Positions 2,257 through 64,000 of a DNA stretch of 64,000 nt are shown in pieces. A program made the translations under genes and the position numbers. A model generated the notes under the pieces. That model made no database searches. It was not told where the DNA came from and worked only from the letters and a program-made list of their open reading frames with translations. Position 1 is the first letter of the stretch. Each line of letters starts with the position of its first letter. Source of the stretch: Boswellia sacra (lineage: Eukaryota; Streptophyta; Magnoliopsida; Sapindales; Burseraceae); contig SNVD02008113.1 in the NCBI GenBank assembly GCA_013180625.2, positions 1 to 64,000 on the forward strand, in the 5' to 3' direction.

Positions 2257-2274
2257 TCCCCGGCAACGGCGCCA
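2257..2274 (-). other. Primer binding site
   Basis: Read on the minus strand this is TGGCGCCGTTGCCGGGGA, the primer site typical of plant Athila/Tat-type elements. It is separated from the LTR at 2281 by six bases. It fixes the element's orientation (5' LTR on the right). Confidence 0.85.
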
Positions 2275-2280
2275 AAAACT

Positions 2281-17732: not shown

Positions 17733-20705
<2,973 letters not shown>

Positions 20706-32240: not shown

Positions 32241-35200
32241 TCATCGTGGTTCTAGCTCAGTGACTGAAGCCTCATTGAGTGAAAATTGAACATTATCATC
32301 AGACTCATACAGCACAAGGACTTCTGGATCATCCTGCTCCGTATAAGTGTGGATAAAAAATGCAGGTTTAGAGGGTACTGGAATAGAAAGAGAGCTGCTA
32401 GTAAGCATGAGGACAACTGTAGCCATGGTAGGTCTATTTGCTGCATTTTCTTGAACACATAGTAAACCAATATGGATGCATCTCATAACTTCACTACTGC
32501 TACCAACCCTTAAAGCGGGATCTAATATATTTAAAGCTGTCCCTTTATTCCAGTTTCTCCATGCCTGCAAAAATTTAACAAGGAGAAAGAAAGACGTTAG
32601 GCTCTTTCATTTCTTTTTTTTTCTCTAATTTTCTGCAAATTCATTGTGATATAAGGGAAAACAAAATTTAATTGATTAAAAAAAAAAAAAAAAACTCCTT
32701 ACATAGGTTAATAGATCTTCTATTTCTTCTCCATTATTAAAACGACTATTTTTTTGACCACTGATTATTTCCAAGACTAACACACCAAAGCTGAAAACAT
32801 CCGACTTGACTGAGAAGTTTCCATGTCTCAAGTACTCTGGAGCCATATAGCCACTGGAAAAAGTTACTACTTAGATTCCTTACATGTAATGAAAGCCAAC
32901 CCATCAGTTTATATATGCAAATAAGTAACCATACTCTAAGTTTAATATCTAAGAAATTGGTTCTAATATATACTCACAAGGTACCCACAACTCTACTTGT
33001 ATCGCCTTCACTTTGATCCATTTGAAACAACTTTGCCATTCCAAAATCTGAAATTTTTGGAATCATATCTTCATTTAAAAGTATATTGCTTGCTTTGAGG
33101 TCACGATGAATGATACGAAACCGAGAATCTTGATGAAGATAAAGAAGCCCTCGAGCTATGCCCCCTATAATTTTGTATCGGATTTCCCAATCTAGTAATA
33201 AACGTTTGATTGCATCTGCAGACTCAGAAAAGCCATAACATAAATACATTATCCGATAGCAGTCAAGTAAAAATTACAGAACAAGTTACAACATGGTTCT
33301 GTTATCATGTAGTCATCTATGCAACTCTTTACTATTCGAGTAAATTGCATGTATAAATAGACATGCACTCTACATTGAAAATTAAAAGAAAGCTAAAAAG
33401 AGAAATAAAACCATACCAAATATGAAGTTATCTAGGCTTGAATTAAGCACAAATTCATATATGAGAAGCCTTTCGTTTCCTTCCAAACTGAAACCTAGAA
33501 GCCTAACCAAATTCCGATGCTGAAGTTTGGCTGCTAGGAGGACCTCATTTTTAAATTCTCGTTCTCCTTGTCCGGAATCTCTAGATAGCCTCTTCACAGC
33601 TATATCCCGTCCATCAGGAAGCCTACCCTGCAATCAGATGTTTGAAACATGAGGAATGCAAACAGAATGGAATTGCCTCCGAAGGAAGAAAATTTACAAT
33701 TTAACTCTTTTTGGGCAACAATTGGTATTATTTTACAGACGATGTCATTAATTACTTACCTTGTAAACAGCACCAAATCCTCCTTGTCCAAGCTTATTAT
33801 CAATGGAGAATTCATTTGTTGCAGTTCTGATTGTGCTGAAGTCGAATTGCAAGGACTCCACGGTGTCATCAAATTTATGAACATCTAATTGTAAGAATTT
33901 ATCATATAGATCAACCCGTTAGTAATAAAATTAAAATAAAATGTAAAGAAAACATTTACATTCAAGGAAAAACACACCTAAAAAGAGAAACTCCTAACCC
34001 TTGTATAACGTTTCTCTGTTTCTGTGAGGATTTTTTTTCTATTATTTGCAACTCGACTAAATCTTTATAGTGGCCATAAAGCTACAGAAAAACCAAGCTT
34101 ATATTTGATAGTCATGGTGAACTAAAGATGGGTATAATTAATTTACCTTCCGTTTCTCGCTTGCTTCTGATCCCCTGCTTTGACTTCCTCCGTCTTAAAA
34201 TGACATAAATGTAGGCAACAAGAACAAGTGCTATGAAGACTACTGTAGAAACAACTACGATTATAGCCGTTCTAGATTCGCTGTCCCCTTTGCCTGCAGA
34301 AACCACAAAAGCACATTGGGATATCGTGAAATGGTAGAGGTTAAGCTATTCCACACTCTCTTGTAAGTGTATCATTCAAAATTAACGTTCCATTTTCACA
34401 TTCGCAATAAGGGTAATTTCTTTTTTTTTAAATGAAGTTGAACATTTGATTTTACCTTCTCTGGTTGTCGAATTATTTGAGGGCCAACGAGGAGCGGTAG
34501 GAGGAATCGCAGGAGATTGTTGTAAATCATAAGGAGTAACCTTATAGAAGGGACTTGAATCCCAGATATAAATACAGCTAGGTCTCATAATAAGAGCAGT
34601 AGTCTGCCCATGGTAGTGACCCTGGGTGTAAGCCAAAGATTTATATAGACATTCGTAGCAGTCACTAGGTGAAATATCAGGAGTACACTGCATTAATGCG
34701 TACATGTTCACTGATGTCAAATTTGCTGACCCAGTTGCGAACTTACGCCCAGGAGCGCCAGTAGAAGCTTTTTTCAGCAAGCGAGTCATGAAACTCAGAA
34801 ACTTCGGATCAAACTCTGTAATGTCCGTTGTAATGTTCTCAACAGTTGCACCTCCGGCCATAGGATCACTCTCCATCTTTCCCAAAAAAGAGCTGTTTGA
34901 ATAGTGAGTAATGCATTGAGGATTTGGTCCCCAAGCAACAACTTCTTTATTGTTTGGACACGTATTTACCATATCTTGGGTTGCGATACGGACGCAGCTA
35001 GCACACTCTTGGGCAGAAGCATCCCCTCTGCAATTCACAAGAGCATAGACTTTGTCCGGCTCTTCTCCAATAGTGGCAGTGTAGTAGAAACCGTCACTTA
35101 CAGTCACATTGGAAGCAAGAGATGAGAGGATGATGTCGCGGTTTTTCTGATAGGTGCTGTTAGCTGTGAAGTTTCCTGTTTCTTCGTAACATAGAGCGCC

Positions 35201-38284: not shown

Positions 38285-39674
38285 TGACACATCCGAAAAA
38301 GGATTGTCTCCCAAGTATAGGAGTGTCGAAGTAATAATCTCGGTGAGACCGAGGTCGATCCACGAGGAAGGGAATTTAAGCGTTATAAATTATAAGCTAA
38401 GCAAACGTGATATGGATGATTCGAAGAGATGGCAAGATAATATCAACAAATATGAGTAAAGAACAAGTTCGTAAACAATAAATAAGAATAATTAGAATAC
38501 AAGAGAAATTAACACAATAACAATGAAGGCTAAGGTTAGGGGATCCGCCCTTGATATTTCAAATAAGGATAATTAACCCATTTTAGTTATATGAATTATA
38601 TTTGTTTCATTACCAATATTTATACCACTTCTTGTAAATGGGTTCAAGCATCCAATGTGCCAATCACCATATGTCTACAACAAATCAAGGTTCCTAACTA
38701 GATTCGTGTCGGTAAGGAAGAACCATACATCATCTAGAAAGGATCCAAGCATTTGATGTGCCAAGGATTGTCGACAATGGATCAAGACCTCCACTTTACG
38801 AGTGGTGTCAAGATTGATTAAGAAATTAAATATAAATCATATTGAATAAACATTATAAGATTAAGATTATTAAGCACATATTAAGGGTTAGAGAATCCTT
38901 ATTCTCATATCAAGGGTTTCACCCTTTCACCTTAGCAAAAGAGAAATTAGAAGAACATTATAATAGAAAGAAAATAAAATGCAAGAAAAAGGAAATTCAT
39001 TAATAACATAAACACACAAAACACAATACAAGATCCTAGCCAAAGCCAAAATGTTCCAGCCAAGGCCAAGATGCCCTAATGGGTCACAAGGCACCTCTAT
39101 TTATAGATACATCCAGGGGCAAACTTGTCAAATTACAAGGGCATAATTGTCAAATATTAGTTGTAAATATCTTTGACAATTGGGATCATTAGGCACCGAC
39201 TTTGACCATCAATTTTGACATCGAAATGTTGTGAATTTTAATCACATGTCTTCATGAAAGTTGTAGATATTTCTCTCAGCTTTCTAGAACATATTGATTT
39301 GCACAATTTGGATACGTATTTTGAGAGATACGGTCCAAATACTGAGGCCTGGTCAGACTGGGCCGAGACTGTAGATGGGTTCACTTCAAGCCCAATTTTG
39401 GTCCACTAAGAGCCCGAATTTGATGATGCTTGTGAAATGCAATCTTGTAGAAAATTGAATCAGCTTTCCAAAACATTAAGAATTGCACCATTCTGATCTA
39501 TAAATAGAGAGTTATGCCCATTTTACCGAACCTGTAACAAAACCAAAATTAAGAGAAATTAATTCCAAAGATGCAAATGCTACAAATATGCTTAAGTTGA
39601 GGAATTTAATGACACTATTAATGCAATATGATGAACTAAACTCTTATTAAACATGCATATTTAAGTGTTCATCA
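38285..39674 (-). repeat. 3' LTR of the LOG-carrying element
   Basis: Starts TGACACATCCGAAAAAGG and ends GTGTTCATCA. It is the same repeat as 44813-46196 and 57454-58823, with several percent divergence. No matching target duplication is visible between 38280-38284 (AGGAG) and the bases after 46196 (ATAAC). Confidence 0.9.
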
Positions 39675-39690
39675 CACCCCCCAACTAGCT
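39675..39690 (-). other. Polypurine tract
   Basis: On the minus strand AGTTGGGGGGTG abuts the 3' LTR. Confidence 0.8.
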
Positions 39691-41011
39691 TATTGCTAGT
39701 CCCTAGCAATTAAAGCGTTATTATTTAGAAGTGATTTATAGAATTTTACATCCAAGGTGGTCATTATTGCACTCTCCTTGATTTTATCCAAATAAACAAA
39801 CTCTCAACTGATTTTTTTTTTAAATGACTCATGTACCCTTTAGTCAAGATATCCACAAACCTTCTTTTGTGCTCAGTTGACACATGACTATGGGGCTTAT
39901 TAGAAATAAGCCATATCGGTTCTAGTATTTGTTAAGGCTAACAACCTTAGGTAGGGGATATTCATTCATTTTATACATTTTTTTTCTTTTTTTTTTTGAA
40001 AGAATGCATCTTTAACCCATGTAGCGAGCCTTAGGCTAATGACTCCCAGACCAGTTGGCCTTAAGGTATTAGGTGTTAAGACACCCCTACGAGCTTAACG
40101 ACTCGGGTTGCCGATGCTTTATTTTTGCTTAGAAACTTGTGGATAGTGCAATGTTCAATCCCATTAAGCTTTCTCCTTAATCCATGTAGCGAGCTTTGGG
40201 CCAATAGCTCCCAACCAGTTGGTCTTAGGGTATTAGGTGTTGAGGCACCCCTCGGGCTTAATTGCTCGAATTAAGGAGGCTACAAGACCAAACTTATCCA
40301 CCATTGCTTTCTCTCTTTTTTCTTTTTTCTTTTTTTTTTCTTTCATTTTTCATTTTTTTTATTTTTTTTTTAAAACTTTCCCCTTCCTTTTGTTGTTATC
40401 CTAAACAAAACAAAAGAACTCAAATATTGCAGTATTTCATTTCGCCACCCACAATCATACATCAAGGTGTGTGTGTGTGTGAAGAAAGATTCATAGATAC
40501 TTGCTTAATGAGCACATAAGCACACAATTTATTAAATGATAAGGTTGTGAGAGTTCATAGATTTGAATGATTCAAAGTGAAATGAATAAGACCTCCTTGT
40601 TATAAAATTCAAAAATCAAGACTAAATAATATCAAATAAGTCTTCAAAAATGCAAGAATAAAATGACAAATTGGTTAGAATGGGTTTCAAGAGTTCAAAC
40701 TGGTCCTCCCTACTCTGCCTTTCCTGACCCAGAATGCGTCTCAAGAGGATTTGAACTCCTTACACCGTACTTTGAATCTAATTACTAACTCGCCTTTTTT
40801 TTTTTGCAAAAAAAAATAAATTTCAAGACACACTTATGTCTACTATCCTTCCCCCCCAACCAAATGAAACATTGTCCTCAATGTTTAAATGTAGAGAGAT
40901 AAAGTATAGGAGACATTACCTGAAGCTTCTGTTATTCAAGAAAGATGACCTGAAAGACTCATAAAATAACATGCTAAAAATAAAATAAAATAAAAGACAA
41001 GAAGAAAAAAA
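39691..41011. other. Non-coding region between LOG gene and 3' LTR, with a duplicated hairpin motif
   Basis: No gene. Two related blocks of about 90 bases (40013-40110 and 40181-40270) share ATGTAGCGAGC, CCAGTTGG and TATTAGGTGTT. Each holds a short inverted repeat (GGTGTTAAGACACC at 40072-40085; GGTGTTGAGGCACC in the second). Both blocks are kept in the other element (59170-59425). A long pyrimidine tract follows at 40310-40385 and a short GT repeat near 40466. Confidence 0.6.
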
Positions 41012-41662
41012 TTACAAACGGAGATTCAAATCCAATTTGCACTTTTTGTTTTGCCCTCCTGCCCAATTAATTTGAGTACTATCTGGGTCAGGTTCATACT
41101 CAACTTCTTGTAATTTGTCAAGTAACTCACCAGCAGAAGTGGCAGAAACAAGGATCTTTCTCGCCCAATTTGGGATAAAATTTTGTTCTACAGCTGCATC
41201 AACAAAACTTATTAAAGGATCAAAGAAATTGTTAACATTCAACAAGCCTATGGGTTTTTTATGGAGGTTCAGTTGGGCCCAAGAGGCAATTTGAAAAATT
41301 TCTTCAAAAGTACCAAAGCCACCTGGTAAAGCAATAAAGGCATCTGAATTGATGAGCATATGTGCCATGCGTTCATGCATAGAGGAGACCTGTAACTCCT
41401 TCCCAACCGTTTTTCCAACCATGCTTTCTACAGCCAAAGCTTTAGGAATAACTCCTAACACTTGACTACCTCCTACATTTGCAGCTGTTGATACGCAACC
41501 CATTAACCCGAGGCTACCTCCCCCATAAACCACATGAATCTTTCTTTCAGCCAGTAGCCTACCAAGATAATTCGCTACTTCTACGAGCTCTTCACTTTTA
41601 CCTGGTCGAGATCCACAGAATACACATATCCTTTGGATTCGACGTTTTGAAGTTCCCTCCAT
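41012..41662 (-). CDS. LOG: LOG-type cytokinin riboside 5'-monophosphate phosphoribohydrolase, intronless, carried by a retrotransposon
   Basis: LOG enzymes release active cytokinin bases from their ribotides in the cytosol. This 216-residue open frame runs the full length of the family. It has CVFCGSRPG near residue 12, the Rossmann-type VVYGGGSLGLMG, the MHER arginine region, the signature PGGFGTFEE with its catalytic glutamate, and the C-terminal KILVSATSAGELLDKLQ. Known plant LOG genes have several introns; this has none. It sits between gag and the 3' LTR of the element 38285-46196, in the element's sense. It is visibly divergent from canonical plant LOG (GFGTFEEIFQIASWAQLN where plants have GYGTLEELLEVITWAQL), so capture was not recent. 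The start is the Met opening MEGTSKRR; the same Met is kept in the decayed copy at 60824. A TATA-like sequence lies about 47 bases upstream. Confidence 0.87.
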   Translation of the reverse strand: MEGTSKRRIQRICVFCGSRPGKSEELVEVANYLGRLLAERKIHVVYGGGSLGLMGCVSTAANVGGSQVLGVIPKALAVESMVGKTVGKELQVSSMHERMAHMLINSDAFIALPGGFGTFEEIFQIASWAQLNLHKKPIGLLNVNNFFDPLISFVDAAVEQNFIPNWARKILVSATSAGELLDKLQEVEYEPDPDSTQINWAGGQNKKCKLDLNLRL

Positions 41663-41708
41663 GTCGATGTGACTCTCTAACTATGTGTGAAGAAGAGACC
41701 AAGACATG

Positions 41709-41722
41709 TGATATTTATGGAG
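41709..41722 (-). promoter_or_regulatory. Candidate TATA box of the LOG gene
   Basis: On the minus strand CTCCATAAATATCA lies about 47-60 bases before the LOG start codon and is nearly unchanged in the second element (CTCCATAAATACCA near 60875). The spacing would give a very short leader. A possible splice acceptor (pyrimidine tract and TTTGCAG at about 41792-41803) is an alternative route to a separate LOG mRNA, but it is not kept in the other copy. Confidence 0.3.
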
Positions 41723-41968
41723 TGCAAAAAGGTATGTTAATGATGATATCTATCTAGGTAGCTCGATTGTTTGTTGAAAAAGTTGACAATACTGCAAAAA
41801 AAAGGTCAAAAGATGATGAAATAAGACACCATAAGTCAAACAAAAGATACAAATTCAAAAATGACAGCTATGAGGTATTAAAATTCAAAAATGATGGCAC
41901 ACATGCATATGTACAGGTAGTTGTGACTGTGGCTCACATCTTCCTCTTGTTTTACGTCCAGAAACGGC

Positions 41969-42529
41969 TTAAACACCTTCTATGAGTTGGGGATATGCTT
42001 CCCATCCAGTTTTTCTTATAAACTGGCAAACAGGGTCGTTTTGAGTCAGATTCCCAAGACTATAGCGTTCCTGCTCATCTCGAAATTTTGTCCACAAATT
42101 AAAAATTTCACGCTGCACAAGTCCACAAGAATGCGTCTCAAGAGTCGTTCGGATATCATCCAAAGACTCTTTACTCAGTCCATTCTTGATGAACTGTAGT
42201 TTATCCTCTCGATTGTTAGACAAATATCCCAATGAGCGGCAACGCTGGTTACAAGTCCATCTTGCACATCTGGGACAAACTTGTAACCTTTTCGCTCTTC
42301 GCTTTTTGGCATAAGAGCTTTTTCCCAAACCTGGCATATGGGAAACAAGATTATCTGAAAACTCACAAGAGAATCGAACCTTGGCTTCAATTAACCATCT
42401 TAAATCAGCAGGAATACCCTTACGCATCAACAACCTTAGTCTTTCTGCACGAGCTTTATAATTTTTAAGCAAATCATTTTGAGGAAGAGAGGGAAAATGT
42501 TTGTGCAATTTTGAGAGAATGGTATCCAT
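41969..42529 (-). CDS. Basic zinc-finger protein resembling carlavirus-type cysteine-rich nucleic-acid-binding proteins
   Basis: 186 residues from the Met opening MDTILSKLHK; an upstream in-frame Met at 42577 would add 16. The middle has GKSSYAKKRRAKR, an arginine/lysine-rich nuclear-localisation-like stretch. It is followed at once by a Cys cluster CPRCARWTCNQRC (CX2CX4CX3C). A basic run directly before a four-cysteine finger, preceded by a helical segment, is the layout of the Carla_C4 family. Those proteins bind nucleic acid and in several viruses suppress silencing or act in the nucleus. The protein is longer than the usual viral form (about 100 residues), with about 80 extra C-terminal residues. 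It lies between gag and LOG, 306 bases before LOG, in the element's sense. The motif is seen; the family assignment is inference; another zinc-binding fold is possible. Confidence 0.6.
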   Translation of the reverse strand: MDTILSKLHKHFPSLPQNDLLKNYKARAERLRLLMRKGIPADLRWLIEAKVRFSCEFSDNLVSHMPGLGKSSYAKKRRAKRLQVCPRCARWTCNQRCRSLGYLSNNREDKLQFIKNGLSKESLDDIRTTLETHSCGLVQREIFNLWTKFRDEQERYSLGNLTQNDPVCQFIRKTGWEAYPQLIEGV

Positions 42530-42583
42530 GTGAAGAAAATGAGAGAGAAGAAAAGAAAATGGATGTAAGGTGAGCAACAGTTT

Positions 42584-43205
42584 TTAGGGAACTGAAAAAC
42601 CGACTTTAAAAGCCACGGAGTACCGTATCCGCCACTTGGCCGGGAAATAAAATAAAAACACACAACTAAAAAAAACGCACACAAAATAAAATAAAAACAA
42701 ACTAGAAATGATAGCAAAAATCAAGAATAAAAATAAAAATGATAATATGGCATAGATGGATAAAATTTGATCAATCATTATAAAGAAATGCAAAAAGAGG
42801 AATCTCTTCAAAAGTGATTTACCACGGTAAAAAATATGCCATTGAGGTGGTACCTTTCTTTTTCTTCTATTTGTGAGAATGAAAGAGATTACCACTATCT
42901 GAGTTTGTTTGTCCTTAAAGCATGCATTATTGAGTGTGGATGTTTCTTCCTGCCTTTTTTCGAACCATGGCTCCCAACTCTTAATCTCCTTCACCTGTAC
43001 AAAATCAAGCAATGAAAATTCTTTAGAAGCAATGGGCACTAGTTGCATACTTGGTTCAAAAGAACTAGTTAACCTGATTTCCGAAGGAGTTAAAAAATTC
43101 TCATTTTGGATATAGTCTTCCACGTTAGTTTTTGTCCTATTAGCTTCCTCATTTTCATCATGCTCAAAAAATTCATTAATATCAAAATTTTGGTTTTCTT
43201 TGCAT
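42584..43205 (-). pseudogene. Gag C-terminal extension in another frame, and pol deletion junction
   Basis: After a one-base shift near 43205 the gag frame continues here as NVEDYIQNENFLTPSE and SLLDFVQVKEIKSWEPW. It then runs into low-complexity hydrophobic sequence and ends FPAKWRIRYSVAFKVGFSVP. The last part corresponds to the spacer that follows integrase in the other element (61700-61830). Protease, reverse transcriptase and integrase have therefore been deleted between these two points. Confidence 0.6.
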
Positions 43206-44583
43206 GATGCATAAGTGAGGATTCAGTCTTTTCTTTGTTAGGTGCAAGTTGATTAACCTCTTCCTTACCCTTTAGGATTGATTCATCATCTTTCTCATAA
43301 GGGTTAGGAATATGTTCTTGATCAACCTTACCATCATGAAGAGCACTTACCGAATCTTCGAGAAGAGCACTTACCGAATCTTCATCTAGATGTTGGCTAC
43401 TTGGATTACTCACACGTGGATTGATGAGGTTTGGCTCGAGTTGAGATGGAAACACACATTTCTCATGAGTACTAAATGCAAATGCAAGTTTTTCAAGGGC
43501 ATCATTCAAGTTTGCCATAGTTTGAGCAACTTGACTATTAAAAGCCTCTTGCTTTGCAATGAATGAATTCCATGTTTCTTCAAGATCCTTATAAGATGCA
43601 TGATCATGAGCTTTTTGAAAATTTTGACATGATTGAATAGGAGGTTGGTAAGATTGTGCATGATTATCATTCCTCCAATCAAAATTCAAGTGATTTTTCC
43701 ATCCAAACTTTTGTGAGTAAGGATTAGGATTTAACCTTTGGAAAGTGTTTAAAACATTGGTTTGGTCATGGAGACTTTTCCTAAAGGTAGGCACAATTGG
43801 ACAATCATCCGTAGGATGATCACTAGAATTACAAGTTTGACAGACAATTTCTTGCATAGACCACATTTCTAAGTCCTCGACTTTCCTAGCTAGGGATGTA
43901 AATTTAACATGTAGATCATGATTCTCCCTAAAGTTATATATGCCTCTACTAGACGTTCTTGGTACCTCATAGGTGCCAACATTGTTCCAATTTTGGGCAT
44001 TTTTCGTTAGTAAGTCTAGGAAATCCATGGCTTCATCAGGGTCTTTATTTTCAAATTGGCCATTACACATTAATTCTACCATTTGCCTAGCTTGATGTGT
44101 AAGACCTTCATAGAAAATTAAAACTAGTCTCCATGTTTTCAAACCATGGTGAGGACAAGTATTAAGCAATGCTTTATACCTATCCCAACATTGGTAAAAG
44201 GTATCTCCTTGTTTTTGAGTGAAATTGATGATTTGCCCTTTGAGATAATTTGTTCTATAGGGAGGAAAGAATTTTTTCAAAAATTGTTGTTGCATTTCAT
44301 CCCATGAACTAATAGATCCTGACTTAAGATTTTGTAGCCATGTTTTAGCTTTATCTTTTAAAGAAAAAGGAAAAAGCTTTAATCTAAAGATGTTTATACC
44401 ACAATTTAGGTCACAATAGATATTGCAAAAATCTTTCAATTCTCTCAAATGCAAAAATGGGTTTTCAACATCTAGGCCATGAAAGTGGGGTAAGAATTGA
44501 ATGAAATTCGATTCATGGTTGAAATATTTTGCATCATGAGGGAAGACTATGCATGATTGTGCATGAGTTCTTATGTAATCCAT
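43090..44583 (-). CDS. Gag of the LOG-carrying element, full length
   Basis: A 497-codon open frame starting MDYIRTHAQS. The capsid part has FLPHFHGLDVENPFLHLRE, FRLKLFPFSLKDKAKTWL and FFPPYRTNYLKGQI, the standard retrotransposon gag pattern. A zinc knuckle CQTCNSSDHPTDDC (CX2CX4HX4C) follows. Near 43345-43385 a short direct repeat encodes EDSVSALLEDSVSAL. The Met lies 230 bases after the 5' LTR. The last ~40 codons are probably out of frame relative to the ancestral protein (see 42584-43205). Gag packages element RNA; since the frame is open, this pol-less element could still make its own particle protein and depend on a related element for enzymes. Confidence 0.88.
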   Translation of the reverse strand: MDYIRTHAQSCIVFPHDAKYFNHESNFIQFLPHFHGLDVENPFLHLRELKDFCNIYCDLNCGINIFRLKLFPFSLKDKAKTWLQNLKSGSISSWDEMQQQFLKKFFPPYRTNYLKGQIINFTQKQGDTFYQCWDRYKALLNTCPHHGLKTWRLVLIFYEGLTHQARQMVELMCNGQFENKDPDEAMDFLDLLTKNAQNWNNVGTYEVPRTSSRGIYNFRENHDLHVKFTSLARKVEDLEMWSMQEIVCQTCNSSDHPTDDCPIVPTFRKSLHDQTNVLNTFQRLNPNPYSQKFGWKNHLNFDWRNDNHAQSYQPPIQSCQNFQKAHDHASYKDLEETWNSFIAKQEAFNSQVAQTMANLNDALEKLAFAFSTHEKCVFPSQLEPNLINPRVSNPSSQHLDEDSVSALLEDSVSALHDGKVDQEHIPNPYEKDDESILKGKEEVNQLAPNKEKTESSLMHHAKKTKILILMNFLSMMKMRKLIGQKLTWKTISKMRIF

Positions 44584-44789
44584 TATTGTTCTTGGTTGGG
44601 TATGAGCATGTTTTCCAAAGAAGATGAGTGGCTACAAACAATTCTACCAACTAATGCAAAGAGAAAGAAAAGATGAGCACATGCAAGAAAAATAAAAATA
44701 GAAATGGGGAGAGAAAAGAGAAACACATACAATAAAAATAGAAATGAGAAAAGAGAATACTTACAATTTTGTATGCCAATTTTTACCTT

Positions 44790-44807
44790 CCCCGGCAACA
44801 GCGCCAA
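44790..44807 (-). other. Primer binding site
   Basis: On the minus strand TGGCGCTGTTGCCGGGGA, one base from the usual Athila/Tat-type site, five bases inside the 5' LTR. Confidence 0.85.
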
Positions 44808-44812
44808 AAACT

Positions 44813-46196
44813 TGACATATCCGAAAAAGGATTGTCTCCCAAGTATAGGAGTGTCGAAGTAACAAACCCGGTGAGACCGGGGTCGATCCATGAGGAAGGG
44901 GATTTAAGCGCTACAAATTATAAGTAAACAAATATGATGTGGATGATTCAAAGGGATGGCAAGATAATATCAACAAATATGACTAAAGAACAAGTTCTTA
45001 GACAATAAATGAGAATAATATAAGAGAGATTCACACAATAATAATGAGAGCTAAGGTTAGGGGATCCGCCTTTGATATTTCAAATAAGGATAAACAACCC
45101 GTTTTAGTTATATGAATTATATTTGTTTCGTTGCCAATATTTATACCACTTCTTGTAAATGGGTTCAAGCATCCAATGTGCCAATCACCATATGTCTACA
45201 ACAAATCAAGGTTCCTAACTAGATTCATGTCGGTAAGGAAGAACCATATGACATCTAGAAAGGATCCAAGCATTTGATGTGCCAAGGATTGTCGACAATA
45301 GATCAAGACCTCCACTTTATGAGTGGTGTCAAGATTGATTAAGAAAATAAATATAAATCATCTAAACAACATAAGATAATGATTATTAAGCACATATTAA
45401 GGGTTAGAAAATCCTCACTCTCATATCAAGGGTTTCACCCTTTCACCTTAGCAAGAGAGAAATTAGCAATACATTATAAGAGGAAGAACACAAATTGCAA
45501 GAAAAAGGAAATTCATTAATAACATTAACACACAAGAGAGAATAACAAGAGATACACCATACAAGATCCTAGCCAAGGCCAAGATGATCCAGCCAAGGCC
45601 CAGATGCCCTAATGGGTCACAAGGCACCTCTATTTATAGATACATCCAGGGGCAAATTTGTCAAATTAGAAGGGCACAATTGTCAAATATTAGTTGTAAA
45701 TATCTTTCACAATTGAGATCATTAGGCACCGACTTTGACCACTGATTTTGACATTGAAATATTGATCATTTTAATCACATGTCTTCATGAATTTCTCTCA
45801 GCTTTCTAGAACATATTGATTTGCACAATTTGGATACGTATTTTGAGAGATACGGTCCAAATACTAAGGCCTGGTCAGACTGGGTCGAGACTGTAGATGG
45901 GTTCACTCTAAGCCCAATTTTGGTCCACTAAGAGCCCGAATTTGATGCTGCTTGTGAAATGTAATCTTGTAGACAATTGAATCAGCTTTCCAAAACATTA
46001 AGATTTGTACCATTCTGATCTATAAATAGAAAGTTATACCCATTTTACCGAACCTATAACAAAACCAAAATTAAGAGAAAATTAATTCCAAAGATGCATA
46101 AACTACAAATATGCTAAGTTGAGGAATTTAATGACACTATTAATGCAATATGATGAATTAAGCTCTTATTAAACATACATATTTAAGTGTTCATCA
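44813..46196 (-). repeat. 5' LTR of the LOG-carrying element
   Basis: Starts TGACATATCCG and ends GTGTTCATCA. Compared with the 3' LTR at 38285-39674 there are many scattered differences (for example TAATAATCTCGG against TAACAAACCCGG), so the two are not recent twins. Confidence 0.9.
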
Positions 46197-46254: not shown

Positions 46255-47356
46255 GGAGGTCATTTAAGCCTATTTTAGTTTTATGAATTATATTTGTTTC
46301 ATTACCAATATTTATACCACTTCTTGTAAATGAGTTCAAGCATCCAATGTGTTGATCACCATAGGTCTACAACAAATCGAGATTCCTAAATAGACTTATG
46401 TTAGTAAGGAGGAATCATATGACATCTAGAAAGATCCAAGCATTTGATGTGTCAAGGATTACCTACAATGGATCATGACCTCTACTTAACGTGTGGTGTC
46501 AAAATTGATTAAAGAAATAAATATAAAATATATAGATAAAATAAACAACACAAGATTACGATTTTAAGCACATATCAAGGGTTAGAAAATCCTTCTTCTC
46601 ATATAAGGGATTTCACCCTTTTATTTTAGCAAAAGAGAATTTTGTGGAACATTGTGCAAGAAAGAAAATAAATTGCAAGAAGGAAATGATTTATTAATAA
46701 TATTAAGAGAACAATACATGAGAGAGAAAATACAATATTAAGAGATCCTAGCTAAGAGCCAAGCGTTCCAAATGGGTCACAATTCACCTCTATTCATAGA
46801 TACATTTGAGGACAAAATTGCCAAATTACAAAGGGATAATTGTAAAATATCTTTTTGACAATTTAGACCATCATGTGCACTGATTTTGACCATCGATTTT
46901 GACATCGAAATACTTATAATTTTGATCACGTCTTCATAAAATTGTAGATATTTCTCTCAAATTTATAGAACATTTTGAATCATACAATTTGGATTTGTAT
47001 TTCAAGAGATATGGTCGAAATACGGAGACGTGGTCAAGCTAGGTTGAGACTACAGACTAGTTTGTTCAAGCCCATTTTTGGTCCACTAGATGCCCAAATT
47101 TCATGATTTTTCTGATATATCATTTTGTGGACAATTTAATCAGTTTTTTACCAAATCAAGATTTGTACCATTCTGATTTACAAATAGAAAGTTAGACCCA
47201 TTCTACCAAACCTACATAAAAAATTGAAATTATGATGAAGCTAATTGAAAAGATGCAAAAAATACAAAGATGCTTAAGTTTAGGAATTTAATGACACTAT
47301 TAGTGTAATATGATAAATTAAGCTCTTATTAAACATACACATTTAAGTGTCCATCA
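46255..47356 (-). repeat. Truncated, older LTR of the same family
   Basis: From ATTTAAGCCTATTTTAG onward it follows the LTR sequence to GTGTCCATCA, but with more divergence and without the first ~290 bases. It lies in the same orientation right next to the 5' LTR, separated by about 58 bases of unrelated sequence (46197-46254). Confidence 0.75.
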
Positions 47357-56432: not shown

Positions 56433-57166
56433 ATTTGATAGGCATAATACTAATGGTCTTAGTTCTTTGTCTTCACAACACTTCATTACACATTAATTCT
56501 ACTAGTTGCCTATCTTGGATGTCGAGGTTGGGGCCTTGCTTGGTACCTCATAGGTGCCAGCAGTGTCCCAATTTTGTGCATTTTCTTCTAAGGAATCTAG
56601 GAAGTCAAGTGCTTCCTCAGGGTCTTTTTCTTTAAATTCTCCATTACACATTAATTCTACTAGTTGCCTATCTTGAGGTGTTAACCCTTCATAGAAGTGT
56701 GCAACTATTCTCCAAGTTTCAAAACCATGGTGAGGACAGGTATTAAGTAGTTCCTTATACCTATCCCAACTTTGTTAAAGGGTTTCCACTTGCTTTTGAG
56801 AGAAATCAGAAATTTGTCTTTTAAGAGAATTTGTTCTATAGGTAGGAAAATTTTTTTTTGAAAAATTGTTGTTTCATCTCATCCCATGGACTAATAGAAT
56901 TCGACCTCAAATTTTGTAGTCATGTTCTAGCTTTATCTTTTAAAGAAAAAGGAAAAAAGCTTTAATCTAATGGTGTTTATGCTACAATTTGGGTCATTGT
57001 AGGAGTTACGTACCTCTTCAAAGATTTTCAAGTGCGAATATGGGTTCTCCATGTCAAGGCCATGAAAGGTGGGCAGAAGTCGAACAAAACTTTGCTTGAA
57101 ATTGAAATGGATTGAATCTGGAGGAGAAACTACACAAGATGGTGCACTAGTCCTTACCTGATTCAT
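56433..57166 (-). pseudogene. Gag relic of a neighbouring element of the same family
   Basis: Read leftwards from its Met at 57166, the frame has FVRLLPTFHGLDMENPYSHL and INTIRLKLFSF, closely parallel to the gag at 44583, then shifts frame near 56950. Further gag sequence is recognisable down to about 56433 (for example the region matching CNGQFENKDPDEAMDFLD), with a short internal duplication (CATTACACATTAATTCTAC at 56482 and 56642). The rest of the element to the left is gone. Confidence 0.75.
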
Positions 57167-57431
57167 ATAATCTCTAAGGGTTCTTCGTTGGTTCTAATCA
57201 TTTTGTTGGGAATGGTTGTCCCCTTCATCAGTGAATATTTCCACATGATTGCCGGCCATGTTTTCTAAGGAAGATGATGTTTTTCTAACAAGTCTACCAC
57301 TAGATGTTCGTGACCAAATTTTCATGCAAGGAAGAGAGAAGAAAAGAGAAGAAAGGACGAACACACAAGAAATTAAGATCTAAGATGAGAAAAGAGTACA
57401 CTTACAATTTTGAACGCCAATTTTTACCTTC

Positions 57432-57447
57432 ATCGGCAACGGCGCCA
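57432..57447 (-). other. Primer binding site (mutated)
   Basis: On the minus strand TGGCGCCGTTGCCGAT, the family's primer site with a changed 3' end. It lies left of the LTR at 57454 and so belongs to the gag relic at 56433-57166. Confidence 0.75.
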
Positions 57448-57453
57448 AAAACT

Positions 57454-58823
57454 TGACACATCCGAAAAAGGATTCTCTTCCAAGTATAAGAGTGTCGAAG
57501 TAATAAACTCAGTGAGACCAGGGTCGATCCACGAGGAAGGGGATTTAAGCGCTACAAATTATAAGTAAACAAATATGATGTGGATGATTCAAAGGGATGG
57601 CAAGATAATATCAACAAATAGGACCAAAGAACAAGTTCTTAGACAATAAATGAGAATAATACAAGAGAAATTGAGACAATAATAATGAGAGTTAAGGTTA
57701 GAGGATCCGCCCTTGATATTTCAAATAAGGATAAACAACCCGTTTTAGTTATATGAATTATATTTGTTTCGTTACCAATATTTAAACCACTTCTTGTAAA
57801 TGGGTTCAAGCATCCAATGTGCCAATCTCCATATGTCGACAACAAAGCAAGGTTCCTAACTAGATTCGTATTGGTAAGGAAGAACCATACGACATCTAGA
57901 AATGATCCAAGCATTTGATGTGCCAAGGATTATCTACAATGGATCAAGACCTCCACTTTACGAGTGGTGTCAAGATTGATTAAGAAAATAAATATAAATC
58001 ATATAAACAACATAAGATAATGATTATTAAGCACATATTAAGGGTTAGAGAATCCTTACTCTCATATCAAGGGTTTCACCCTTTTACCTTAGCAAGAGAG
58101 AATTTAGAAAGACATTATAAGAGAAAAAACACAAATTGCAAGAAAAAGGAAATTCATTAATAACACACAAGAGAGAATAACAAGAGATGCACAATAGAAG
58201 ATCCCAGCTAAGGCCAAGATGCCCCCAATGGGTCACAAGACACCTCTATTTATAGATACATTCAAGGACAAACTTGTCAAATTACAAAGGAATAATTGTC
58301 AAATATTAGATACACCAACTTTGACAATTAGGGTAATTAGGTGAACCGACTTTGACCATCGATTTTGACCTTGAATTATTGTGAATTTTAATAACATGTC
58401 TTCATGAAAGTCATAGATATTTCTCTTAGATTTCTAGAACATCTTGATCCATACGATTTGATACGTAGTCTGAGAGATATGGTCAAAATACTGAGGCATG
58501 GTCAGGCAGGGCCGAAACTGCAGATGGGTTCACTTTAGGCCCATTTTTGGTCCACTAAGAGCCCGAATTTGATGATGCTTCTGAATACAATCTTGTAGAT
58601 AATTTAATCAGCTTTCTAAAACATTAAGATTTGCATCATTCTAATCTATAAATAGAGAGTTATGCCCATTTTACCAAACCTGCATCAAAACCGAAATTAA
58701 GAGAAAGTTAATTTAAAAGATGTAAAGACTACAAATATGCTTAAGTTGAGGAATTTAATGACACTGTTAATGCAATATGATGAACTAAGCTCTTATTAAA
58801 TATAAATATCTAAGTGTTCACCA
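57454..58823 (-). repeat. LTR shared by two elements
   Basis: Starts TGACACATCCG and ends GTGTTCACCA; full match to the LTRs at 38285 and 44813. On its left are a primer site and gag (a 5' LTR context). On its right are a polypurine tract and LOG (a 3' LTR context). One LTR therefore serves two internal regions in the same orientation. Confidence 0.88.
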
Positions 58824-60824: not shown

Positions 60825-61130
60825 GTCTATGCAACTCTCTAACTATGTATGAAGAAGAGAACAAGAGATGTGGTATTTATGGAGTGCAAAAAGGTATGCT
60901 AATGATGACATCCAAATAGGTAGCTCGGCTGCTTGTTGAAAAGTTTGACAATTATGCATAGAAATTCAAAAAAGACGATGAAATAAGACACCATAAGTCA
61001 AACAAAAGATACAAATTCAAAAATGACAGCTATGATGCATTAAAATTAAAAAATGATGGCACGCATGCATATGTACAGGTAGTTGTGACTGTGGCTCACA
61101 TCTTCCTCTGGTTTTACGTCCAGAAACGGC

Positions 61131-61690
61131 TTAAACACCTTCTATGAGTTACGGATATGCTTCCCATCCAGTTTTCTTATAAATTGGCAAACAGAGTCGT
61201 TTTGAGTCAGATTCCCAAGACTATAGCGTTCCTGCTCATCTCGAAATTGTGTCCACAAATTAAAAATTTCACGCTGCACAAGTCCACAAGAATGCGTCTC
61301 ACGAGTCACTCAGATATCATCCAAGGACTCCTTACTCAGTCCATCCTTGATGAACTGTAGTTTATCCTCTAGATTATTAGACAAATATCCCAAGGAGCGG
61401 CAACGCTGGTTACAAGTCCATCTTGCACATTTGGGACAAACTTGTAACCTTTTTGCTCTTCGCTTTTTGGCGTAAGAGCTTTTTCCCATACATGGCATGT
61501 GAGAAACAAGATTATCTGAAAATTTTTAAGAAAATTGAACCTTGGCTTCAATTAACCATCTTACTTCGATAGGCATACCCTTCTACATCAACATCCTTAC
61601 TTTTTCTGCGCGAGCTTTGTAAATTTTAAGCAAATCATTTGGAGGAAGAGAGGGAAAATGTTTGTGTAGATTTGAAAGAATGGTGTCCAT
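61131..61690 (-). pseudogene. Second copy of the zinc-finger accessory gene, decayed
   Basis: Starts MDTILSNLHKHFPS as in the copy at 42529 and keeps the basic stretch and Cys cluster (KKRRAKR, CPKCARWTCNQRC). It has in-frame stops near 61590 (after MLM), 61529 and 61310. It lies between the integrase gene and LOG, which fixes the ancestral gene order as pol, zinc finger, LOG, 3' LTR. Confidence 0.75.
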
Positions 61691-61849: not shown

Positions 61850-64000
61850 TTAGTCAAAATTTTCAAAGAATGGTTTTAACCATTGTCCATTAACTTTAAA
61901 CACATTACCATTCTTTGGGTTCTTAATTTCAACTGCTCCATGAGAGAATACATTTTTAACAATGAAAGGCCCAGTCCAACGAGACCGAAGTTTACCGGGA
62001 AACAAATGCAATCTTGAATCATACAAAAGAACTTTTTGTGAAGGTTCTAAAGATTTTCTAACAATAGATTTGTCATGAAAAACCTTCATTTTTTCTTTGT
62101 AGATTTTAGAATTTCCATAAGCCTCATTCCTGATTTCTTCATGTTCACTCAGTTGGAGTTTACGTAACTTGCAAGCATCATTCAAGTTTGTGTTAAATGT
62201 TTTAATGGCCCAATAAGCTTTATGTTCAATTTTCACAGGCAAGTGAAAAGGTTTTTCATAAACTAATCTATAAGGAGACATTTCCAATGATGTTTTGAAA
62301 GCAGTTCGGTAAGCACAAAGTGCATCATTAAGTCTTAAAGACCAATCTTTACGATTTGGGTTAACCGTTTTTTGTAAGATATGTTTTATCTCCCTATTAG
62401 CTAATTCAACTTGTCCACTTGTTTGTGGGTGATAAGGTGTAGAAATTTTATGGGTTATTCCATATTTCTTTATTAAAGTTTCAAATGGTTTGTTACAAAA
62501 ATGTGTACCCCAATCACTAATAATGGCTCGAGGAATTCCAAATCTACTCAAGATATTCACTTTCAAGAATTTGACAACTGTTTTGTGATCATTATTTCGA
62601 CATGGAATTGCCTCGACCCATTTTGAAACATAGTCTACTGCAACAAGGATGTACACGAAACCAAATGACGGTGGAAAGGGTCCCATAAAATCAATACCCC
62701 AACAATCAAAGATTTCAACACCCAGAATGGGATTCAAAGGCATCATGTTTCTTTTTGAAATGGATCCCAATTTTTGACAATTTTCACACGTTTTGCAAAA
62801 TGCATGTGCATCTTTAAATAAGGTGGGCCAATAAAATCCATATTGTAAGATTTTAGCAACTGTTTTTCTAGATGAAAAATGTCCTCCACATGCTTCAGAA
62901 TGACAAAAGTTAATGACACTACTTACCTCATTGTCGGGTATGCATCTTCTTATTATTTGGTCTGGACAATATTTGAACAGATATGGATCATCCTAATAAA
63001 AATTTTTCACCTCGATCAATAACTTTCTTTTGTCTTGAGCATTCCAATGAGGTGGCATTTTTCCTGTTGCAAGAAAATTTACAATGTTAGCAAACCAAGG
63101 TATAGTAGCAACAGAAAATAAAAATTCATCAGGAAAAGAATCATTGATAGGTGAAGTTTCAATTAATGTCTCTTTCGTTAATCTTGAGAGATAATCTGCA
63201 ACGAAATTTTCGGCTCCTTTTTTATCCTTTATTGTGATGTTGAATTCTTGGAGCAATAAGATCCACCGTATCAATGTAGGTTTTACATCCTGTTTAGACA
63301 TTAAATATCTCACAGCTGCATGGTCAGTGTAAACAATTATTGGAGAACCAATTAAATAGGATCGAAATTTGTCCAATGTAAATACTACTGCAAGTAGTTC
63401 TTTTTCAGTTGTTGTATAATTCATTTGTGCATCATTTAAAGTCCTACTTGTATAGTATATCGCATAAGGCTTACCTTATTTTCTTTGTCCTAAGACAACA
63501 CCAACGGCATAGTCGCTTGCATCACACATCAATTCAAAAGGCAAGGACCAATCAGGAGATTGCATAATTGGAGCAGTTGTTAAAAGTCCAATTAATGTAT
63601 CAAAGGCATTTTGACATTCTTGAGTCCATTCAAAGGAAATATCTTTTATTAAGAGGTTATAAAGAGGTTTAGATATAGCACTGAAATTTCTTATGAACCT
63701 CCTATAAAATCCAGCATGCCCTAAGAATGAACAAACCTCCTTGACTGTTTTTGGTGGAGGCAAATGGGAAATTAATTCCACTTTTGCTTTGTCCACTTCA
63801 ATTCCTTTAGAAGACACTACATGACCTAAGACAACTCTTGAAGTGACCATATAATGACATTTTTCCCAATTCAAACTAAGACCTTTTTCTACACACCTTT
63901 TTAGGACTTTTTCTAAGTTTTCAAGACAATTGTCAAAAGAGTTTCAAAAGACAGTTAAATCATCCATAAAAACTTCTAAACAATGCTCAATCATGTCACT
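61850..64000 (-). pseudogene. Pol of an Athila/Tat-like Ty3 element: RT end, RNase H, integrase (runs off the window)
   Basis: One frame reads from the window edge leftwards. The RT catalytic stretch FMDD lies near 63965. The thumb region FLGHAGFYRRFIRNFSAISK, RNase H (CDASDYAVGVVLGQRK, then [12 protein letters not shown] and [10 protein letters not shown]), the H2C2 finger with [10 protein letters not shown], and the integrase core follow. The integrase core has [18 protein letters not shown] and [13 protein letters not shown], ending [12 protein letters not shown]. Three stops interrupt it: TGA at 63944-63946, TAA at 63476-63478, and TAG at 62993-62995, where neighbouring sequence suggests a former Trp. 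There is no chromodomain, in keeping with Athila/Tat. It is followed by the two accessory genes, not directly by the LTR. Confidence 0.9.

What the first reader, a model, noticed from the sequence alone, without database searches (positions are those of the whole stretch)
41012..42529. LTR retrotransposon carrying an intact LOG cytokinin-activating enzyme and a zinc-finger gene
Seen: two open, full-length, intronless genes in the element's sense lie between gag and the 3' LTR of the element 38285-46196. One has all LOG signatures (GGGSLGLMG, PGGFGTFEE); the other is a small basic Cys-cluster protein. Known: LOG enzymes directly produce active cytokinin, and plant host LOG genes have introns. 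Inferred: a retroelement that makes cytokinin and a nucleic-acid-binding protein could push cells towards division or meristem fate, or dampen silencing, favouring its passage to the germ line. I know of no plant LTR element described with this pair.
Basis: partly seen in the sequence, partly recalled or inferred. Interest (0 to 1): 0.93.

Follow-up and report, generated by a model that had tools for sequence, protein, structure and literature searches.

The report
Retrotransposon carrying hormone and virus genes
A plant jumping gene carries two extra genes, one of the family that activates the plant hormone cytokinin and one related to a zinc-finger protein of plant RNA viruses, both with relatives in other plants; together they would likely make the host cell divide and weaken its silencing of the element.

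Summary
On the minus strand, 46196-38285 is an LTR element (LTRs 93% identical) with a gag, no pol, and two open ORFs in gag sense: 42529-41969 and 41662-41012. The second is a LOG (PF03641). The first is no generic zinc finger: it belongs to Viral_NABP/Carla_C4, the cysteine-rich nucleic-acid-binding proteins of flexiviruses. A second copy at the window's right edge reads RT-RH-integrase-NABP-LOG-LTR; contig L001 reads RH-integrase-NABP without LOG. NABP relatives occur in Populus, Xanthoceras, Acer, Rhamnella and Orobanche. LOG relatives form one clade apart from the sampled host LOGs, and 100 of 120 end in an LxLxL tail (0 of 120 LOG1/3-type host proteins). dN/dS is 0.2-0.3 for both genes. 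LOG domains in Gypsy elements were already in print (Citrus, Populus); the viral-type partner and the tail did not turn up in my searches, which saw listings and passages only. The mechanism is inferred: silencing suppression and/or proliferation by NABP, local cytokinin release by LOG. There are no expression, enzyme or silencing data, and the window's own genome could not be searched.

The parts
44813..46196 (-). 5' LTR of element 1 (element reads on the minus strand)
   Evidence: direct repeat of 38285-39674, 93 differences in 1366 aligned sites; TG...CA ends
44789..44806 (-). primer binding site, TGGCGC...GGGGA type (complement of a tRNA-Asp 3' end; tRNA identity recalled)
   Evidence: sequence just inside the 5' LTR; same motif inside the LTR at 57.4 kb
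43090..44583 (-). gag, 497 aa
   Evidence: PF03732 E=1.6e-19
41969..42529 (-). NABP: Viral_NABP/Carla_C4-family basic Cys-rich protein, 186 aa; last 13 residues frame-changed against relatives
   Evidence: PF05515 and PF01623 above cut-off; 312 of 347 candidates homologous at E up to 0.01; alignment A1
41905..41985 (-). conserved block directly after the NABP family's stop codon
   Evidence: 9 differences in 78 aligned bases to L001, against 123 in 510 in the NABP frame; P0081 continues in frame into it
41712..41719 (-). TATA-like CATAAATA about 50 nt before the LOG ATG, present in both copies
   Evidence: function not tested
41012..41662 (-). LOG-family protein, 216 aa, one open frame, tail CKLDLNLRL
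   Evidence: PF03641; family profile 274 bits to Arabidopsis 2a33; model pLDDT 83.8, tail 202-216 under 50
39675..39685 (-). polypurine-like tract GTTGGGGGGTG before the 3' LTR
38285..39674 (-). 3' LTR of element 1
63476..63943 (-). element 2: end of RT and start of RNase H (runs towards the window edge)
   Evidence: RVT_1 18 bits, below its cut-off of 29.6; RT_RNaseH_2 54.1 bits
62993..63475 (-). element 2: RNase H
   Evidence: PF17917 E=1.6e-25
61850..62992 (-). element 2: integrase (H2C2 + rve), directly after RNase H
   Evidence: PF17921, PF00665
61134..61690 (-). element 2: NABP, interrupted copy, 86% identical protein over 173 residues
   Evidence: tblastn; 3 stop codons among 172 compared codons
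60186..60824 (-). element 2: LOG, interrupted copy
   Evidence: tblastn, 75% over 224 columns with gaps; 2 stops, 4 codons skipped
57454..58823 (-). element 2: 3' LTR of the same family
   Evidence: Kimura distance 0.10-0.11 to element 1's LTRs; start

Best explanation
Element 1 is a pol-less Ty3/Gypsy LTR retrotransposon, likely of the Athila lineage, whose 3' region encodes a Viral_NABP-family Cys-rich protein and a LOG-family protein with a basic tail ending in LxLxL; the pair is predicted to weaken host silencing and release active cytokinin, so that cells expressing the element would likely divide and pass it on. Shown: the module lies downstream of integrase in the sister copy; both genes have homologues in other plants; both evolve with dN/dS below 1; the LOG relatives form a clade apart from the sampled host LOGs and carry the tail. 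Inferred from families: LOG enzymes cut cytokinin ribotides to the free base; carlavirus NABPs are weak silencing suppressors, and one (CVB p12) acts as a transcription factor that causes hyperplasia. Inferred from the motif alone: the basic LxLxL tail may bring LOG to the nucleus or to TOPLESS co-repressors. My estimates: element module 0.95; LOG activity kept 0.8; NABP acting on silencing or transcription 0.55; a division and germ-line benefit 0.3.
For: Anatomy. Second copy pol-NABP-LOG-LTR. L001: integrase then NABP, no LOG. Rhamnella gene models fuse an integrase end to NABP (P0082) and NABP to LOG (P0106). 29 of 32 aligned NABPs match PF05515 and 29 of 32 PF01623 at E up to 0.01. Omega: NABP copy 1 vs L001 0.22 (bootstrap 0.13-0.36); LOG copy 1 vs copy 2 0.28 (0.14-0.53); integrase 0.09. 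LxLxL in the last 15 residues: 100 of 120 listed LOG relatives, 0 of 120 listed LOG1/3-type host proteins, 96 of 6000 shuffles. Two adjacent basic residues in the last 20: 109 of 120 against 5 of 120. Tree: 29 element-type LOGs one clade, support 100/99. 27 of the 120 listed LOG clusters are Reevesia gene models with 16 different chromosome labels. CRP functions: PMC12172455 and PMC8839810, passages.
Against: No transcript, small-RNA, enzyme or silencing data. LOG motifs are less complete than in host LOGs: PGGxGTxEE in 101 of 120 (host 109 of 120), GGGxxGLMG in 101 (host 120), the upstream MxxR...FI pattern in 95 (host 120), so some copies are dead, truncated or changed. NABP Cys spacing (C-x2-C-x4-C-x3-C, 104 of 120) differs from the carlavirus spacing quoted in PMC8839810, and L001's NABP is just below the PF01623 cut-off (20.4 against 20.9). 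L001 shows that such an element can lack LOG. Element 1 lacks pol and its NABP tail is frame-changed; copy 2 has interrupted NABP and LOG. That the genes of other genomes lie inside LTR elements is inferred, not seen. Only host LOG1/3-type proteins and LOG8 were in the tree.
Confidence: 0.5

Rival explanations
1. The two genes are passengers: once captured, they ride along with no function for the element, as in ordinary gene transduction.
For: Gene transduction into LTR elements is described (PMC11963269 passage). Copy 2 has interrupted NABP and LOG. L001 lacks LOG.
Against: Both genes have dN/dS 0.2-0.3, relatives at 55-75% identity in several plant genera, and a tail shared by 100 of 120 LOG relatives and 0 of 120 LOG1/3-type host proteins.
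Confidence: 0.15
2. The module serves the element's RNA or particle rather than the host cell: NABP acts as an extra RNA chaperone or packaging factor, and LOG acts on nucleotides other than cytokinin (nucleotide pools, or nucleotide immune signals made by TIR proteins).
For: NABP sits directly after integrase, where env-like ORFs sit in other elements. LOG belongs to the wider TIGR00730/SLOG group, and scores 111 bits against a cut-off of 300 for NCBI's cytokinin equivalog, a model used for prokaryotes. The pol-less copy kept gag, NABP and LOG.
Against: The best solved-structure matches of the LOG are Arabidopsis proteins 2a33 and 1ydh, known as LOG3 and LOG8 (recalled). The NABP's viral relatives have reported silencing and transcription effects (PMC12172455, PMC8839810, passages).
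Confidence: 0.2
3. The LOG's role is mainly regulatory through its tail: a LOG fold that recruits TOPLESS co-repressors to alter host transcription, with or without catalysis.
For: LxLxL tail in 99 of 106 full-length element-type LOGs, low confidence and so probably disordered in the model, in 0 of 120 LOG1/3-type host proteins.
Against: The catalytic PGGxGTxEE is kept in 101 of 120. EAR function is inferred from a short motif and recalled knowledge; no binding test.
Confidence: 0.15

Closest known systems
Plant Gypsy elements with a YgdH/LOG domain (Citrus sinensis, C. clementina, P. trichocarpa: PMC9289625, section 12 read; Steinbauerova et al. 2011, not held, abstract recalled: two Athila-like elements with similarity to LOGL4)
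   Same: LOG-family domain as an extra part of a Ty3/Gypsy element
   Different: The parts of PMC9289625 that I read mention no NABP partner and no LxLxL tail; its figures and supplementary chart of further domains were not seen. PMC6317226 (passages) counted extra ORFs of 250 codons or more, so NABP (~182 aa) and LOG (~217 aa) fall below that threshold.
Cysteine-rich NABPs of flexiviruses (carla-, viti-, allexi-, mandariviruses; PF05515, PF01623)
   Same: Pfam match over 86 residues including the Cys cluster; basic block just before it
   Different: Cys spacing x2-x4-x3 instead of x2-x12-x4; about 182 aa; encoded by a retrotransposon, after integrase
Phalaenopsis Gypsy elements with a functional AlkB m6A demethylase (PMC9289625, sections 12 and 17)
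   Same: Extra ORF with a domain that also occurs in flexiviruses, kept in one Gypsy lineage
   Different: Enzyme on RNA, not on a hormone precursor; two genes here instead of one
Athila/OTA elements with env-like 3' ORFs (PMC6317226, PMC11728184, passages)
   Same: Sense ORFs after integrase, non-Met PBS, no second RNase H between RNase H and integrase
   Different: The 3' ORFs are NABP and LOG, not a transmembrane or Athila ORF-1 protein

Membership tests
Ty3/Gypsy, OTA superclade, Athila clade | LTR pair with TG...CA ends and a tRNA primer site other than tRNA-Met | tested here: met
   lineage rule from PMC6317226 passages; the tRNA sequences themselves are recalled
Ty3/Gypsy, OTA superclade, Athila clade | Order RT-RH-integrase, no second (archaeal) RNase H between RH and integrase, no chromodomain | tested here: met
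   element 2: RNase H 62993-63475 directly followed by integrase 61850-62992, then NABP; only RVT_1 (weak), RNase H, H2C2 and rve models found. RT is only partly inside the window, and element 1 itself has no pol.
Ty3/Gypsy, OTA superclade, Athila clade | RT/RH/INT phylogeny with reference elements | not tested
   no reference set at hand
Ty3/Gypsy, OTA superclade, Athila clade | 5-bp target duplication | tested here: not met
   flanks of element 1 differ; it lies beside a more diverged LTR of the same family and may be a recombinant
LOG cytokinin-activating enzymes | PF03641 / TIGR00730 domain with PGGxGTxEE | tested here: met
LOG cytokinin-activating enzymes | Fold of solved plant LOGs | tested here: met
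   by sequence: match to 2a33, E=7.4e-81 for the family profile; confident model; a fold search was not accepted
LOG cytokinin-activating enzymes | Phosphoribohydrolase activity on cytokinin ribotides | not testable with these tools
   needs purified protein
Flexivirus NABP / CRP (PF05515, PF01623) | Domain score above the curated cut-off | tested here: met
   window protein 32.1 (cut-off 23) and 29.6 (20.9) bits; 29 of 32 members match each at E up to 0.01. L001's NABP: 34.1 for PF05515, but 20.4 for PF01623, just below
Flexivirus NABP / CRP (PF05515, PF01623) | Carlavirus Cys spacing C-x2-C-x12-C-x4-C | tested here: not met
   C-x2-C-x4-C-x3-C in 104 of 120; carlavirus spacing from a PMC8839810 passage
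Flexivirus NABP / CRP (PF05515, PF01623) | Basic, NLS-like block before the Cys cluster | tested here: met
   109 of 120 by pattern; KKRRAKR in the window copy
Flexivirus NABP / CRP (PF05515, PF01623) | Silencing suppression or transcription-factor activity | not testable with these tools
   needs plant assays

The most novel reading that the evidence does not exclude
A widespread lineage of plant retrotransposons carries its own two-gene programme for reaching the germ line: an RNA-virus-type zinc-finger protein that blocks silencing and switches on cell proliferation, and a cytokinin-activating enzyme retargeted by a nuclear, TOPLESS-binding tail. It would be a transposon that makes a host hormone to turn its host cell into a stem cell.
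Probability: 0.28. Interest if true: 0.95.

Novelty: new variant of a known kind. Interest (0 to 1): 0.74.

Why it matters
Extra genes of plant retrotransposons are common and mostly without known function. This lineage offers two with readable biochemistry, each under purifying selection: a LOG-type enzyme and a relative of viral silencing suppressors. If active, they would show that a retrotransposon can act on host development, would link RNA viruses and retrotransposons by gene exchange, and would give a direct test of how elements reach the plant germ line. It also warns annotators that some plant genes named LOG or LOGL10 may be transposon genes.

Tried and rejected
Recent private retrocopy of a host LOG: rejected as far as host LOGs were sampled. 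The element-type LOGs form one clade apart from 18 host LOG1/3-type proteins and AtLOG8, and a second copy lies in the window. Assembly artefact: unlikely, since the same gene order recurs in copy 2, and integrase-NABP in L001 and P0082. Generic retroviral-type zinc finger: rejected, since the Pfam match covers 86 residues and two viral families. Age from LTRs: distance 0.072, but no target duplication, so it may not date one insertion. With that distance as neutral clock, all three frames stayed open in 0 of 5000 simulations, LOG alone in 586, NABP alone in 694 and gag alone in 28 of 5000; I do not lean on this. NABP structure: pLDDT 55.6, not used. Viral contigs held no NABP relative and only distant LOGs, 25 loci at 25-31% identity. 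Shared contig lengths as a hint that NABP and LOG lie on one contig: of 104 NABP and 70 LOG lengths (contigs of whole genomes left out), 6 were shared against a shift mean of 2.7 (maximum 8), which is not notable; from 2000 bases up, 3 (8723, 4511, 2128) against a mean of 0.14 (maximum 2) (a rerun, in which two lengths had been missed). Suggestive only; the contigs were not seen. Bacterial promoter/terminator scan: not informative for a plant. RNA fold of the block after NABP: z -0.35, -0.88, -1.90, no claim.

Full report
What is there. The element lies on the minus strand between LTRs 46196-44813 and 39674-38285. Its order is 5' LTR, primer site, gag (44583-43090), NABP (42529-41969), LOG (41662-41012), about 1.3 kb without a recognised gene but with an ~80-bp segment repeated twice, a G-rich tract and the 3' LTR. 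There is no pol: about 560 bases separate gag from NABP. The LTRs differ at 93 of 1366 aligned sites. No target duplication is visible; a more diverged LTR-like piece lies just beyond at 46269-47356, so the element may be a recombinant.

The two genes. LOG matches PF03641 (E=3.7e-37), and its family profile matches the solved Arabidopsis proteins 2a33 and 1ydh. Its model has nine helices but is poor (pLDDT 55.6). The Cys spacing, C-x2-C-x4-C-x3-C in 104 of 120 relatives, is tighter than the C-x2-C-x12-C-x4-C quoted for a carlavirus (PMC8839810, passage). I therefore call it a member of the Pfam family, not a carlavirus protein proper.

They are element genes. A second copy in the window reads RT end-RNase H-integrase (63943-61850), NABP (61690-61134), LOG (60824-60186), LTR (58823-57454), all on the minus strand; its NABP and LOG are interrupted. 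L001, a 3330-base contig filed under a bacterial genome but with plant Gypsy sequence, reads RNase H end-integrase-NABP; its NABP scores 34.1 for PF05515 and 20.4 (cut-off 20.9) for PF01623. After NABP it aligns with the window as far as 41907 and resumes at 40924, so the LOG segment of about 1 kb is absent. In this one contig, then, NABP stands without LOG, which suggests that LOG was gained or lost as a block. Rhamnella gene models fuse an integrase end to NABP (P0082) and NABP to LOG (P0106).

How widespread. NABP: 312 of 347 candidates at E up to 0.01; of the 120 listed, 11 bear organism names, from seven species of Populus, Xanthoceras, Rhamnella, Acer and Orobanche. LOG: the 120 best of 7896 include Xanthoceras, Diplodiscus, Reevesia, Pterospermum, Populus, Melia and Parasponia; 27 of the 120 are Reevesia gene models with 16 different chromosome labels. 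By number these look like dispersed repeats, but I could not see their flanks.

Selection. Nei-Gojobori dN/dS: NABP copy 1 against L001 0.22 (bootstrap 0.13-0.36; 170 codons, 2 skipped), copy 2 against L001 0.21 (0.12-0.32), copy 1 against copy 2 0.31 (0.15-0.66); LOG copy 1 against copy 2 0.28 (0.14-0.53; 212 codons, 4 skipped); integrase 0.09 (0.05-0.14) as yardstick. Both genes were kept as proteins, less strictly than integrase. The LOG value rests on one pair of copies.

A tail of their own. 100 of the 120 listed LOG relatives carry LxLxL within the last 15 residues (99 of 106 of full length); 0 of the 120 host proteins nearest to Arabidopsis LOG3 do; shuffled sequences do in 96 of 6000. 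Two adjacent basic residues in the last 20 occur in 109 of 120 against 5 of 120. All hits were counted, truncated and fused ones included. The tail has low model confidence. LxLxL is the EAR repressor motif that binds TOPLESS (recalled); binding was not tested. In a tree of 50 proteins, 29 element-type LOGs form one clade (100/99) and 18 host LOG1/3-type proteins with AtLOG8 another (91/93, not starred); I chose 28 of 120 and 18 of 120 rows. Other host subfamilies were not at hand. PGGxGTxEE is present in 101 of 120 element-type LOGs and 109 of 120 host LOGs; GGGxxGLMG in 101 and 120; the upstream MxxR...FI pattern in 95 and 120.

How it likely works. Shown: gene order, homology, selection, tail. 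From the families: LOG releases active cytokinin from its ribotide (established for LOG enzymes; recalled); carlavirus CRPs are weak silencing suppressors, and CVB p12 acts as a transcription factor that causes hyperplasia (PMC12172455 and PMC8839810, passages). Inferred: both products act on the cell in which the element is expressed, one against silencing and for proliferation, the other by local cytokinin. Plants form germ cells late from dividing meristem cells (recalled), so extra divisions would put more copies into gametes. That the pol-less copy kept gag, NABP and LOG fits a benefit in cis, but it is one copy. How NABP and LOG are translated is open; a TATA-like box about 50 nt before the LOG start occurs in both copies, and T-rich tracts ending in AG precede both genes of copy 1.

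What is known. PMC9289625 (sections 12 and 17 and passages read) lists YgdH/LOG domains in Gypsy consensuses of two Citrus species and, without its filter, in P. trichocarpa, and cites Steinbauerova 2011 (not held; abstract recalled). Its figures and supplementary chart were not seen, so a NABP could be listed there. Term look-ups in PMC7264820, PMC11963269 and PMC6317226 found no cytokinin, lysine decarboxylase or carla terms where I asked for them; the passages of PMC11728184 describe other Athila ORFs. Searches showed no title or start of abstract that reports such a pair; the lists of 27 (25 of 942) and 67 (20 of 33) were partial, and the library lacks most subscription journals. PMC6317226 counted extra ORFs only from 250 codons upward, which would miss both genes.

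Verdict. The LOG half was known; the viral-type partner, the tail, the selection and the recurrence appear to be new. Function is untested.

Noticed in passing
window 41905-41985 (-); 61073-61150 (-); L001:2335-2420: The ~78 bases after the NABP family's stop codon are about 88% identical between window copy 1 and L001, more than the NABP frame (76%); P0081 has a residue in place of the stop and continues in frame (FKPLLDVKPEEDVSHNHNY). Possible stop-codon readthrough or RNA signal.
   Followed up: partly
window 46269-47356: Third, more diverged LTR-like piece of the same family next to element 1.
   Followed up: no
window 57454-58823 and 56505-57449: The 3' LTR of element 2 is followed by a primer site and a broken gag, as in a tandem or recombined element.
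   Followed up: no
window 213-2276: Another gag-like ORF and a primer-site motif of the same TTTGGCGC type near the left edge.
   Followed up: no
window 19830-20705 and 34382-35107: Two similar ORFs that look like DUF26 cysteine-rich secreted proteins, perhaps duplicates (family recalled, not searched).
   Followed up: no
L001: A plant Gypsy fragment is filed as part of a Candidatus Nomurabacteria genome, an apparent contamination.
   Followed up: partly
P0167, P0182, P0223 (Populus), P0179 (Melia), P0240 (Parasponia): Plant gene models named LOG/LOGL10 are among the nearest relatives of the element LOG; four of these five carry the LxLxL tail (P0240 not) and P0167, P0179, P0240 fall in the element-type clade. 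Databases may name transposon genes as host hormone genes.
   Followed up: partly
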